A stretch of 64,000 nucleotides of DNA from Chitinophagaceae bacterium (GTDB lineage: Bacteria; Bacteroidota; Bacteroidia; Chitinophagales; Chitinophagaceae), in the NCBI GenBank assembly GCA_026415715.1, contig JAOAGO010000005.1, positions 1 to 64,000 on the forward strand, in the 5' to 3' direction. A program made the position numbers and the translations under genes. Below, piece after piece: positions 44,016-50,644 of this stretch. Under the pieces are notes generated by a model. It did not search any database. It was given only the letters and a program-made list of their open reading frames with translations, and was not told the origin of the DNA. Each line of letters starts with the position of its first letter. The stretch's first letter is position 1.

Positions 44016-45308
44016 ATGAAGAATCTTCTCAATATTAATTATGTTTTGTTTTGTCTTTCGTTTCATTTTTCATTCATAACTCAGGCCCGGTCGCCAGACA
44101 GTATTTATTTTTCAAACATACGGTCAGTGAAGTTATATAAGTCAGGCGATTTGTATTCATATCCGGTCATCACTTTAAACGGGAACGATAAGCTGGAACT
44201 TCATTTTGATGATATGGACGGGGATGTCAAATTTTACTACTACAGTTTTCAGTTATGCGATGCCGACTGGCGACCGGCAAACGTGCAGGCTTTTGATTAC
44301 ATAAGAGGATTTCTCAGCAATCGTATTACGACATACAGGATGTCGTCTTTAATTTCTACACGCTATACACATTATATGGCTGTTATTCCGGAAAGGAATT
44401 CAGTCCCGTCCCGCGGTGGAAACTATTTACTGAAAGTATATCTGAACGATGATACCACTAAAATTGCTTTTACCCGAAGATTTCTGGTAGTGAATTCAAA
44501 AGTGCAGGTCAGCGGTTTCATTACTCAGCCTTATAATGCCCGTTGGTTTCGCACCCATCAGCGCATACAGGCTCAGGTGATTCCTATGCAGGGGAAAATT
44601 CAAATCATTTCTCCACAGGATTTAAAAATGGTAATCGTTCCGAATTACATCTGGAAGCAATCACAATATTTTGACCGTCCCACGTTTTTCAGGGGAAATT
44701 TTTTTGAATACAGTGATGAAGAAGCCGGCACATTTCCGGCCGGAAAAGAATGGCGTTGGGTGGATTTACGGAGCCTGCGCATACGCAGCGAGCGAATGCT
44801 GAAGATTATAGACAGCGACACTTCGAAAAGGATTGATGTGTACGTGAATCCCGATTCCGAGCGCAGCCATCAGTTATACGTTTATTTCAGAGATTATAAC
44901 GGGCTTTTTTCTATTGAAAACCGTGACCAGCCAAATGCTTTTTGGCAAAGCGAATATGCATGGGTTCATTTTACCTATGTGCCCAAAGGTAACAGAGCCT
45001 ATCCCGGAAAAAATGTTTACATTTTCGGCGAACTGACTCAATATGAATGCAACGAAAACTCAAGAATGACATTTAATGAGGAAAAAGGTGTTTATGAAAA
45101 AGCGCTCTACTTAAAGCAGGGATTTTATAATTATAACTATGTAACCGTGCCGGACAATCAAACCGGAAATATTTCTTACGAATTTACCGAAGGAAATTTT
45201 TGGGGCACTGAAAATGCATATATGCTACTGGTTTATTTCAGGCCTCCCGGCGCAAGAGCCGATGAGTTGGTGGGTTATGCCTTGCTAAATTCTTTTTTTC
45301 AGCAATAA
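44016..45308 (+). CDS. DUF5103 / type IX secretion system plug-protein-like
   Basis: FDDMDGDVKFYYYSFQLCDADWRPANVQAFDYIRGF, WVHFTYVPKGNRAYPGKNVYIFGELTQYECNENSRM. Confidence 0.82.
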   Translation: MKNLLNINYVLFCLSFHFSFITQARSPDSIYFSNIRSVKLYKSGDLYSYPVITLNGNDKLELHFDDMDGDVKFYYYSFQLCDADWRPANVQAFDYIRGFLSNRITTYRMSSLISTRYTHYMAVIPERNSVPSRGGNYLLKVYLNDDTTKIAFTRRFLVVNSKVQVSGFITQPYNARWFRTHQRIQAQVIPMQGKIQIISPQDLKMVIVPNYIWKQSQYFDRPTFFRGNFFEYSDEEAGTFPAGKEWRWVDLRSLRIRSERMLKIIDSDTSKRIDVYVNPDSERSHQLYVYFRDYNGLFSIENRDQPNAFWQSEYAWVHFTYVPKGNRAYPGKNVYIFGELTQYECNENSRMTFNEEKGVYEKALYLKQGFYNYNYVTVPDNQTGNISYEFTEGNFWGTENAYMLLVYFRPPGARADELVGYALLNSFFQQ

Positions 45309-46282: not shown

Positions 46283-49200
46283 ATGAATAAAAAATTTTTT
46301 TTATTAATTCCAATCTTAATTGCCTCCTACTTTCCAATTAATCAAAATGTTTATAAAGAAAAGAATGAAGTTGATAAAACTTTGAACAATCAGTTAAAAT
46401 CAGGTATTCCATTCAACGTTCCGTATCAGGGAATCGAAAAAGAATACAGATCCGACAAAATAAATTTCAAGCATTGGTTTTCAGAAATTCGGAATAATAT
46501 CCTGCAATCGGAATATTATATCCGCTGGCAGAAGGCTTACGGATGTTATTCCTCTCCAAACAGATTACAGAATTTGCGTTTTTTTTATTATGAAGACGGG
46601 TATGCAGTCTCGCCGAGAGCGATTAGAATTTTAACAGAAAAAAATAAATTATATAAGGGCGAAAAAGAAATACAATATAAAGATGAAGAAGATTGGCAAA
46701 TCAAATTTTTTATTGATAAAAAATGGCGGTCAGGAGGAAAATGGAGTATTGAAGGGAATAAAGCTGAATACATAATGCCACATATGACGATACAGTATCT
46801 GAATAATATGGAGGGAATGCGACAGAATTTTATTTTAAATCAAAAAATTTCCGGGAAAATTGAAATTAAAGTGTCATTAAAAACCTTACAGAAATATAAG
46901 GTTTTTTCTGATAAAATAGTATTCTTTCATCATAAAACTAATAGACCGATCCTGGAATACAGAGATCTGAAAGTATGGGATGCAGAACATAAATTGTTAA
47001 AGGGATATTTTAAAAAAATACACAGAGGATTCAAAATTGTTGTAGAAGCTGCTGATGCGGTTTTTCCAGTAACAATTGATCCGTTAAACACTACACCTTC
47101 TGCCATAATTGAAGGAAATCAGAATGATGCCGGTCTCGGAGTATCTGTTTCTTCAGCAGGAGATGTTAATGGAGACGGATACAGTGATATTATTGTTGGG
47201 GCTTATCAATACGATAACGGAAATACAGATGAAGGAGCAGCATTTATATTCCAGGGTTCATCTTCAGGTATTAATACTAGCCCCGCAGCTCAATTAGAGG
47301 TAAATCAGGATAATGCATGGTTTGGTGCTTCGGTTTCCTTAGCCGGAGATATAAACGGAGATGGTTATGGTGATGTTATTGTTGGAGCACCTCAATATGA
47401 TAATGGGAATACTGATGAGGGAGCTGCCTTTTTGTTTCATGGTTCTGCTACCGGAATTAATACCAGTTATTCAACATTATTAGATGGCAATCAAGATGGT
47501 GCAAATCTGGGCCCAGTGTCTACTGCCGGTGATGTGAATGGAGACGGATACAGTGATGTGATTGTGGGAGTTCCTTACTTTGATAACGGCAATTTAAACG
47601 AAGGCCAGGTAAGAGTTTATCATGGATCATCATCAGGATTAAACAGCACCCCAACCACAATACTGGAAAGCAACCAGGATGGCGCTGAGATGGGTTGGGA
47701 TGTTTCTGCGGCAGGAGACGTTAACGGCGACGGCTTTTCTGACATCATTATCGGTATCCCTAAATTTGATAATGGTCAAAACAACGAAGGGATTTGTCAA
47801 ATCTATCATGGCTCTAATACCGGATTAAATTCAACACCAGCAACTACGCTGGAAATGAATCAAAGTGATGCAGATTTCGGATTTTCTGTTTCCACAGCAG
47901 GAGATGTGAATGGAGATGGATATAGCGATATAGTTGTCGGAGCTCCCTTATATGACAATGGACAAACTGATGAAGGAACAGCGTTTGTTTATCATGGATC
48001 TTTCTCCGGAACAAACGCTACCCCGTCCTCAACTTTGGATATGAATCAAACAGATTCAAGATTTGGACATGCTGTTTCTGTAGCCGGTGATTTAAATGCA
48101 GACGGGTATAGCGATATTATCGTCGGCGCTGAATATTATGAAAATCCGGAACCTAATGAAGGCGCATTTTTTATATATACCGGAAGTTCGGGAGGGATAA
48201 CGAACAATCCTGCTGTATCGGTTGAAAGTAATGCTTCTAATACCTTCCTGGGGTTTGCGGTAGCCTCTGCAGGAGATGTAAATGGTGATGGAATGAGTGA
48301 TGTGGTTGTAGGCGGAGACGGTTTTACAAACGGTCAAACCGACGAAGGGGCCGCATTTGTATATCATGGAACCACCAGTGGAATTAATACACTGGAAGCT
48401 GATACATTGGAAAGTAATCAGTCAGAATCCTACTTTGGCATTTCAGTCAACACGGCAGGTGATGTGAATGGCGACGGGTACGACGATGTTATTGCAGGTG
48501 CATGGCTATATGATAACGGGGAAACGGATGAAGGAGCTGCCTTTATTTATCACGGAAGTATATCAGGAATAAACACGAGTCCGGCTCTTATGATTGAAAG
48601 CAATCAAGCCGGAGCTGGATTCGGATCTTCCGTTTCCTCAGCCGGCGATGTGAACGGAGACGGATACAGTGATATAATTGTTGGCGCTTTTTTATACAGT
48701 AACCCCGAAAATCAGGAAGGAAGAGTATATGTTTATCATGGTTCAGCCTCGGGCGTAAATAGTACACCCGCTGCCACTATGGAAAGCAATCAAAACGGCG
48801 CATGGTTTGGATTCGTTTCTTCAGCCGGCGATATAAACGGAGATGGATATAGCGATGTTATTGCTGGAGCTCCGTTATATGATTTCGATTTAACCGATGA
48901 AGGCGGTGCATTTCTGTATTATGGCAGTTCAACTGGAATTAATACAAATCCTGCAGTAAGCCTGGAAGGAAATCAAACCGATTCATATTTTGGTTTAAGT
49001 ATCTCTGCGGCCGGAGATGTAAACGGCGATGGATACGGGGACATCATTATTGGAGCACCATTACATGATAATGGTCAAACCGATGAGGGAAGGATATATA
49101 TATATCATGGATCTTCAACAGGGATTTCAAGCACGCCTTCTGCAACCAGGGAAAGCGATATAAACAGTGCTGGTTTTGGCAGATCCGTTTCCTCGGCCGG

Positions 49201-50644
49201 TGATGTAAATGGAGACGGATTCAGTGATGTAATTATAGGCGCCCCGGGTTATTCAAATAATGAAACAGAGGAAGGAGCTGCTTATTTATTTCATGGATCA
49301 AGTTCGGGCATAAGTACATCTGCAGATTTAATATTAGAAAGTAATCAAAATAATGCCAATTTTGGAATTTGTGTCTCTTCAGCAGGGGATGTTAATGGTG
49401 ACGGATATAATGATATTATAATCGGAGCTGAATATTATGACAACGGACAAAATAATGAGGGCAGGGCATTTATTTACCATGGCTCGCCATCAGGTATTAA
49501 TTCTGGCAATTTTTATTTTATAGAAAGTAATCAGAATGGAGCTTTGTTTGGGGTGTCTGTGTCTTCAGCCGGTGATGTGAACGCCGACGGATTTAGCGAT
49601 ATACTGGTAGGCGCTGACTACTACGATAAGCCTTTGACAGATGAAGGAATTGTTGTTGTGAATCATGGAAATTTAAAAGGGGATAATGTTATCCGGAATA
49701 ACATTAGGATTTATGATGATAATTTAACCACGCTGTACGGCAGCTCAAATTTTTCTGATAATCATTTTGGGATAGGACTATATGTAAAATCCTTTTTAGG
49801 CAGAGACAGCGGAAAGCTTGTTTGGGAAGTGCGGAAAAATTTTGATGCTTATAGCGGAAATCCGATTACGAATAGTGTTTCATACAGTGGTCAACAAACC
49901 ACATTTACCAACTTGGGTCTTGTCGGTACGGAACTGAAAAATGTTGTAACTAAAGCGAACGGTGCCTTATACACTAAAATGCGGGCACGAGTAAGATATC
50001 ACCTGGCAAAAGCAATTACAGGTCAGGTATACGGACCTTGGCGTACCTGGTCATTACGTAAATCCAATCATTTTCATTTAGGAGTAATTAAAACAGGAAT
50101 TTTATTACCCGTTGATTTGGTCAGTTTTAGGGTTTCCTGGCTTCAAAAGGGACAATCTGCACAAATTAGTTTTCACACTGTTAACGAAAACAGAGTAGAG
50201 GCATATGAAATAGAACGTAGCCGGGATGGAATTCATTTCACTAAAGTAGTGAAAATACCGGCACGAAATATTGGAGTTCAGCAAAGTTACCAGTATGCAG
50301 ATTATGAAGCACAAAGCCGGAAAGTTTACTATCGGTTGAAAATACTGGAATTATCAGGTTCATATCAGTACAGTAACATAGTAAAGTTGACGCATCAGGG
50401 AATAGAAGATATTTTAGTTTATCCAAATCCGGCACGGGAAAATATTCAGATAGGTTTAACCAAAGAATTCAGAAGCCTGGAGGTTGATGTATGGGATATA
50501 GGTGGACGTTTAGTAAAACAAATTACACTGAATCGTCCCGGCCGACAAGTTATGTTACCCACCGGGGATTTGCCAGCAGGAATTTATTGGCTGCATTTAA
50601 GAACAGAAAACAACAGGCAGACTGTTAAATTAGTAAAAGAGTAA
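46283..50644 (+). CDS. Secreted FG-GAP (integrin-alpha-like) beta-propeller protein with T9SS type A C-terminal sorting domain
   Basis: N-terminal signal-like segment; 14 copies of a GD[VIL]N[GA]DGxxD(I/V)(I/V)xG repeat; C-terminal VYPNPARENIQIGL...AGIYWLHLRTENNRQTVKLVKE. Confidence 0.93.
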   Translation: MNKKFFLLIPILIASYFPINQNVYKEKNEVDKTLNNQLKSGIPFNVPYQGIEKEYRSDKINFKHWFSEIRNNILQSEYYIRWQKAYGCYSSPNRLQNLRFFYYEDGYAVSPRAIRILTEKNKLYKGEKEIQYKDEEDWQIKFFIDKKWRSGGKWSIEGNKAEYIMPHMTIQYLNNMEGMRQNFILNQKISGKIEIKVSLKTLQKYKVFSDKIVFFHHKTNRPILEYRDLKVWDAEHKLLKGYFKKIHRGFKIVVEAADAVFPVTIDPLNTTPSAIIEGNQNDAGLGVSVSSAGDVNGDGYSDIIVGAYQYDNGNTDEGAAFIFQGSSSGINTSPAAQLEVNQDNAWFGASVSLAGDINGDGYGDVIVGAPQYDNGNTDEGAAFLFHGSATGINTSYSTLLDGNQDGANLGPVSTAGDVNGDGYSDVIVGVPYFDNGNLNEGQVRVYHGSSSGLNSTPTTILESNQDGAEMGWDVSAAGDVNGDGFSDIIIGIPKFDNGQNNEGICQIYHGSNTGLNSTPATTLEMNQSDADFGFSVSTAGDVNGDGYSDIVVGAPLYDNGQTDEGTAFVYHGSFSGTNATPSSTLDMNQTDSRFGHAVSVAGDLNADGYSDIIVGAEYYENPEPNEGAFFIYTGSSGGITNNPAVSVESNASNTFLGFAVASAGDVNGDGMSDVVVGGDGFTNGQTDEGAAFVYHGTTSGINTLEADTLESNQSESYFGISVNTAGDVNGDGYDDVIAGAWLYDNGETDEGAAFIYHGSISGINTSPALMIESNQAGAGFGSSVSSAGDVNGDGYSDIIVGAFLYSNPENQEGRVYVYHGSASGVNSTPAATMESNQNGAWFGFVSSAGDINGDGYSDVIAGAPLYDFDLTDEGGAFLYYGSSTGINTNPAVSLEGNQTDSYFGLSISAAGDVNGDGYGDIIIGAPLHDNGQTDEGRIYIYHGSSTGISSTPSATRESDINSAGFGRSVSSAGDVNGDGFSDVIIGAPGYSNNETEEGAAYLFHGSSSGISTSADLILESNQNNANFGICVSSAGDVNGDGYNDIIIGAEYYDNGQNNEGRAFIYHGSPSGINSGNFYFIESNQNGALFGVSVSSAGDVNADGFSDILVGADYYDKPLTDEGIVVVNHGNLKGDNVIRNNIRIYDDNLTTLYGSSNFSDNHFGIGLYVKSFLGRDSGKLVWEVRKNFDAYSGNPITNSVSYSGQQTTFTNLGLVGTELKNVVTKANGALYTKMRARVRYHLAKAITGQVYGPWRTWSLRKSNHFHLGVIKTGILLPVDLVSFRVSWLQKGQSAQISFHTVNENRVEAYEIERSRDGIHFTKVVKIPARNIGVQQSYQYADYEAQSRKVYYRLKILELSGSYQYSNIVKLTHQGIEDILVYPNPARENIQIGLTKEFRSLEVDVWDIGGRLVKQITLNRPGRQVMLPTGDLPAGIYWLHLRTENNRQTVKLVKE
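47088..49680 (+). repeat. 14-unit tandem FG-GAP coding repeat, 186-nt period
   Basis: First base of the GD(V/I/L)N motif at 47159, 47345, 47528, 47714, 47900, 48086, 48272, 48458, 48644, 48827, 49013, 49199, 49385, 49571. Confidence 0.93.

What the first reader, a model, noticed from the sequence alone, without database searches (positions are those of the whole stretch)
47088..49680. FG-GAP protein: 14 repeats at a near-perfect 186-nt period, with two matching single-codon deletions exactly seven repeats apart
The motif positions are spaced 186 nt (62 aa) in 11 of 13 intervals. The two exceptions are 183 nt (repeats 2 to 3 and 9 to 10). Each lacks one residue in the same place (LGPVSTAGD and FGFVSSAGD versus FGxSVSSAGD). 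FG-GAP repeats form 7-bladed integrin-alpha-like propellers, and 14 = 2 x 7, so this looks like two stacked propellers from duplication of a 7-blade unit of 1299 bp. The pairwise similarity of repeat n to n+7 is not uniformly higher by eye, so the duplication may be old or the deletions convergent. DxNxDG Ca2+ loops are present in every repeat.
Basis: partly seen in the sequence, partly recalled or inferred. Interest (0 to 1): 0.6.

Follow-up and report, generated by a model that had tools for sequence, protein, structure and literature searches.

The report
Secreted bacterial double integrin-like β-propeller
This gene encodes an exported bacterial protein whose 14 similar calcium-binding repeats most likely fold into two seven-bladed wheels like the head of human integrins; the kind is known, and the wheels were probably built blade by blade rather than by copying one whole wheel.

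Summary
The ORF at 46283-50644 (1453 aa) carries 14 FG-GAP repeats spaced 62 aa, except 61 aa at 2->3 and 9->10, with a DxNxDG loop in all 14. Repeats 8-14 alone are predicted as a 7-bladed propeller (pLDDT 95, pTM 0.93, TM about 0.75 to integrin alpha). The whole model loses confidence at the 7/8 junction. In 66 non-redundant complete relatives from many phyla the repeat count is a multiple of seven in 60 (7, 14, 21). The evolutionary half is not supported. Similarity of n to n+7 is not raised (p=0.77 protein, 0.81 DNA). The repeat tree has no n/n+7 cherries, and forcing all seven pairs is rejected (AU p=0.0007); the one strong pair is adjacent (3+4). The same one-residue deletion appears in arbitrary blades of relatives, so two lying seven apart is weak (7/91=0.077). 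A faint period-7 signal appears only between proteins, strongest for the end blades (1~8, 7~14), and fits position in the propeller. The C-terminus is a T9SS sorting domain. Tandem 14-repeat FG-GAP propellers in bacteria were reported in 2011, so this is a new member of a known kind.

The parts
46283..50644 (+). FG-GAP double-propeller ORF, 1453 aa
46283..46342 (+). probable signal peptide (MNKKFFLLIPILIASYFPIN), inferred from sequence
   Evidence: sequence; not tested with a predictor
46454..47092 (+). conserved N-terminal beta-rich domain, ending ..FPVTIDPL; shared with relatives of other phyla, no Pfam match
47105..48403 (+). repeats 1-7, inferred propeller 1
48404..49702 (+). repeats 8-14, propeller 2; modelled alone from 48374 as a 7-bladed propeller
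47507..47524 (+). LGP-VST in repeat 3, one residue short of FGxSVSS
48806..48823 (+). FGF-VSS in repeat 10, one residue short
49703..49999 (+). post-repeat strand-rich domain conserved in relatives (..YHWRARxxY..), no Pfam match
50417..50635 (+). Por_Secre_tail, type A T9SS C-terminal sorting domain
   Evidence: PF18962, 3.1e-11; TIGR04183

Best explanation
An exported Bacteroidota protein, probably held at or released from the cell surface by the type IX secretion system. Its 14 FG-GAP repeats fold into two adjacent seven-bladed integrin-alpha-like propellers, repeats 1-7 and 8-14. Each 62-aa unit supplies strand D of the preceding blade, then A, B and C. The D strand ahead of repeat 1 closes blade 7 and the D strand ahead of repeat 8 closes blade 14, so the second propeller starts without any linker and the 62-aa spacing runs through the junction. 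One Ca2+ per blade in the AB loop (DxNxDG) rigidifies the discs, which serve as a binding or adhesion scaffold. The repeat array arose by single-blade amplification and turnover, with selection for closed rings keeping the total at a multiple of seven. Shown: repeat anatomy, counts in relatives, rejection of full n/n+7 pairing, sorting domain. Predicted: the propeller fold. Inferred: the strand exchange at the junction, Ca2+ binding, adhesion and ligand, and the turnover-plus-closure history.
For: Repeats 8-14 modelled alone: pLDDT 95.3, pTM 0.93, 28 strands = 7 x 4 with a strand ahead of the first A strand; integrin alphaV/alpha5 propellers match at TM about 0.75 by either length. Full 1192-aa model: pLDDT 85.1, integrin propeller targets covered at TM 0.70-0.73, with a drop below 50 at model residues 637-642, the 7/8 junction. 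Phmmer hits integrin alpha-5 at 4e-25. Relatives: 60 of 66 non-redundant complete ORFs hold 7, 14 or 21 repeats, 44 of 46 in the 62-aa class, and the 7->8 spacing is 62 in 23 of 29. Between proteins, repeats at index offset 0 (z 11.9) and 7 (z 7.6) resemble each other and no other offset exceeds z 1.8; strongest cells 1~8 and 7~14; also 14 vs 21 (z 12.3) and 7 vs 14 (z 4.3). The last repeat lacks the segment that carries the next D strand. Lag-1 excess in 19/58 proteins (14/59 in DNA) against lag-7 in 5/58 (1/59). T9SS CTD and SprA in the same genome.
Against: No experiment. The pTM of the full model is 0.50, so the relative placement of domains is unknown, and coordinates could not be inspected to confirm which strands pair at the closure. 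A construct cut to seven repeats would tend to close as seven whatever the true partition. The z-scores rest on shuffles that ignore relatedness between the proteins. Ligand and adhesion function are untested.
Confidence: 0.85

Rival explanations
1. The 14 repeats came from a fairly recent duplication of a complete 7-blade unit of 1299 bp, and the two one-codon deletions are inherited copies of one event.
For: 14 = 2 x 7; deletions exactly seven apart; repeats 3 and 10 as sisters not rejected (AU p=0.10); weak between-protein offset-7 signal; one relative, L080, shows clear n/n+7 similarity in protein and DNA.
Against: Within this protein lag-7 identity 0.538 against mean 0.549, p=0.77; DNA p=0.81; synonymous codons p=0.22. 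Seven-pair constraint AU p=0.0007, and repeat 3 pairs with adjacent repeat 4 at 97%. Same column deleted in blades 1, 5, 11, 12 and 13 of relatives. Chance of spacing 7 is 7/91.
Confidence: 0.05
2. An ancient 7-blade duplication in the ancestor of the 14-repeat family, with the pairing since erased by blade turnover or gene conversion; the remaining offset-7 signal is its vestige, not a structural effect.
For: Offset-7 residual is positive for all seven pairs.
Against: Signal is strongest at the end blades 1~8 and 7~14, as closure would give, and the index-matched signal between proteins is itself faint, showing little long-lived blade identity.
Confidence: 0.25
3. The repeats fold into something other than 7+7, for example an open solenoid or rings of 6 and 8.
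For: A WD40 array of 15 blades is modelled as 7+8 (PMC9218822); full-model pTM only 0.50.
Against: Counts in relatives fall on 7, 14 and 21; repeats 8-14 are modelled alone as an integrin-like propeller with pTM 0.93.
Confidence: 0.05

Closest known systems
Integrin alpha-subunit beta-propeller (alpha-5, alpha-V; FG-GAP, PF01839)
   Same: FG-GAP motif, DxDxDG-type Ca2+ loop, 7 blades, predicted fold TM about 0.75
   Different: Two propellers, a Ca2+ loop in every blade, very regular 62-aa period, T9SS sorting domain; integrin thigh/calf domains not expected in bacteria and none seen in Pfam
Bacterial tandem FG-GAP proteins of Chouhan et al. 2011 (PMC3192720), e.g. four Rhodobacterales HTCC 2654 entries with 14 repeats
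   Same: 14 repeats read as two tandem 7-bladed propellers, Ca2+ loop in each repeat
   Different: Different phylum; here an N-terminal domain shared across phyla and a T9SS sorting domain are recorded; those sequences were not fetched and compared here
WRAP of Nostoc punctiforme, 14 near-identical WD40-like blades folding as 7+7 (as cited in PMC9218822)
   Same: 14 blades, two 7-bladed propellers, amplification of blades
   Different: Different propeller lineage (WD40), near-identical blades, part of a STAND ATPase

Membership tests
FG-GAP / integrin-alpha-like 7-bladed propeller | FG-GAP repeats over the Pfam cut-off | tested here: met
   PF01839 14 stretches, 368.6 bits
FG-GAP / integrin-alpha-like 7-bladed propeller | Ca2+-binding DxDxDG-type loop between strands A and B | tested here: met
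   D-x-N-x-D-G in 14/14, between the first two strands of each repeat; metal binding itself untested
FG-GAP / integrin-alpha-like 7-bladed propeller | Seven blades per closed ring | tested here: met
   Predicted only: repeats 8-14 alone; counts in relatives; repeats 1-7 only within the full model
T9SS type A cargo | C-terminal sorting domain over cut-off | tested here: met
   PF18962 43.9 bits vs 27; TIGR04183 37.4 vs 23
T9SS type A cargo | Genome encodes the translocon | tested here: met
   SprA_N match 5.2e-152; other components not searched
T9SS type A cargo | Export and CTD cleavage | not testable with these tools
   needs secretome of wild type and a T9SS mutant
Tandem propeller by 7-blade block duplication | n/n+7 repeats are nearest relatives | tested here: not met

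The most novel reading that the evidence does not exclude
Across phyla this FG-GAP family changes in single blades, yet almost only chains with a multiple of seven persist (7, 14, 21, probably 28), with no linker at the ring junction; blade number is thus quantised by ring closure and not by copying whole rings.
Probability: 0.5. Interest if true: 0.4.

Novelty: new member of a known kind. Interest (0 to 1): 0.27.

Why it matters
The protein itself is of a known kind. The family is a clean natural case for how repeat proteins count: repeat numbers fall on 7, 14 and 21 with few intermediates, although similarity patterns point to single-blade amplification. WD40 arrays are reported to peak at 7 and 14 with a continuum between (PMC9218822), so the near-absence of intermediates here is the notable part.

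Tried and rejected
7-block duplication as a recent origin. Deletions as shared markers. Other FG-GAP-type genes in the same genome as paralogues: the contig C40 pair are VCBS-like proteins of different layout. Pfam for the N-terminal and post-repeat domains of this protein gave nothing even at E=1. Plasmid and phage collections hold only distant relatives, below 60% identity. Searches were input errors of mine.

Full report
Observation. The ORF at 46283-50644 (+) encodes 1453 aa. A motif scan finds 14 FG-GAP repeats with spacings of 62 aa except 61 aa at 2->3 and 9->10. Repeats 3 and 10 each lack one residue at the same column. Pfam finds the same 14 FG-GAP stretches and a C-terminal Por_Secre_tail, and NCBIfam agrees on a T9SS type A sorting domain.

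Is n/n+7 similarity raised? No. With the repeats aligned, mean identity at lag 7 is 0.538 against 0.549 for all pairs (permutation p=0.77). BLOSUM score (p=0.70), DNA (p=0.81), third positions (p=0.89) and synonymous codons (p=0.22) agree. The maximum-likelihood repeat tree has no n/n+7 cherry. Its one strong cherry is 3+4 (97). Forcing all seven n/n+7 pairs costs 35 log units (AU p=0.0007), while forcing only 3+10 is not rejected (p=0.10). Two independent deletions would lie exactly seven apart in 7 of 91 cases. Among 42 proteins with 14 repeats (the window's included), the same one-residue gap (columns 14/15) occurs in blades 1, 5, 11, 12 and 13 of other proteins, so it looks like a recurrent, position-independent change.

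Relatives. A scan of genome contigs returned 72 loci from bins labelled Bacteroidetes, Acidobacteria, Hydrogenedentes, Myxococcota, Planctomycetota, Chloroflexi, WOR-3, two archaea and others. Many share an N-terminal domain and the 62-aa repeats. Counting repeats with a profile built here gives 7, 14 or 21 in 60 of 66 non-redundant complete ORFs without an internal gap, and 44 of 46 in the 62-aa class (earlier counts). The exceptions I could read: L088 has what looks like a degenerate 21st unit, L097 lacks its start, L151 is 10+4 split between two frames, L036 and L153 belong to a class with a period near 69 aa, and L107 appears to be a true six. L053, cut by both contig ends, shows 28. The relatives were chosen for similarity to a 14-repeat query, so their proportions are not a census.

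How the arrays evolve. Inside proteins, lag-1 similarity is raised at p<0.05 in 19 of 58 and lag-7 in 5 of 58. In DNA the figures are 14 and 1 of 59. This fits single-blade amplification, as described for propellers in general in PMC9218822. The window protein itself shows no significant lag-1 excess; its one local sign is the 3+4 pair. Between proteins, after removing row and column means, repeats at the same index (z 11.9) and at offset 7 (z 7.6) resemble each other and no other offset exceeds z 1.8. The strongest cells are 1~8 and 7~14. The excess at offset 0 modulo 7 also holds for 14- against 21-repeat proteins (z 12.3) and 7- against 14-repeat proteins (z 4.3). The effect is small, a few tenths of a percent identity, and the shuffles ignore relatedness. 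I read it as position within a ring, because the end blades dominate, but an ancient block duplication cannot be excluded.

Structure. AlphaFold2 on residues 62-1253 with 30 sequences gives pLDDT 85.1 and pTM 0.50, with a drop below 50 at model residues 637-642, the junction of repeats 7 and 8. Foldseek matches integrin alpha propellers at a target TM of 0.70-0.73. Repeats 8-14 alone, with the strand before repeat 8, give pLDDT 95.3, pTM 0.93 and 28 strands, and match integrin alphaV at TM 0.75/0.76. In every unit the D strand lies ahead of A-B-C. A D strand lies ahead of repeat 1, and the last repeat lacks the segment that would carry another. Fourteen D strands for fourteen A-B-C sets fit two rings, each closed by its first strand, and would explain why the 62-aa spacing runs through the junction (62 in 23 of 29 relatives).

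Function. The sorting domain and SprA in the same genome point to T9SS export. Surface binding or adhesion is inferred from the integrin-like fold and is the least certain step. The neighbours are housekeeping genes: a transaldolase family enzyme upstream, isocitrate dehydrogenase downstream on the other strand, and a T9SS plug-domain protein at 44016-45308. They add no functional hint beyond T9SS.

Known or new. Chouhan et al. 2011 (PMC3192720) reported bacterial FG-GAP proteins with seven repeats and with two tandem sets of seven, a Ca2+ loop in each. This protein is a new member of that kind.

Noticed in passing
46454-47092: N-terminal domain (..EYxIxWQ..APNRxQNLR..VTIDPL) conserved across phyla with FG-GAP arrays but without a Pfam match in this protein even at E=1.
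   Followed up: partly
L159 (G010:C655:7000-24000): A same-genus genome carries three tandem 14-repeat paralogues; the window carries one.
   Followed up: partly
L151: A 14-repeat gene split 10+4 between two frames, either a decaying gene or an assembly error.
   Followed up: no
L107: Apparently intact relative with six repeats, the one clear exception to multiples of seven in the 62-aa class; collapse in assembly possible.
   Followed up: partly
L080: The one relative with clear n/n+7 similarity in protein and DNA, a candidate true 7-blade block duplication.
   Followed up: no
Synechococcus phage B23, MN695335.1:64380-65744: Only phage record with FG-GAP-like repeats (33% identity), annotated as flagellar hook-length control protein.
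   Followed up: no
44016-45308: T9SS plug-domain protein gene (PF17116) two genes upstream.
   Followed up: no
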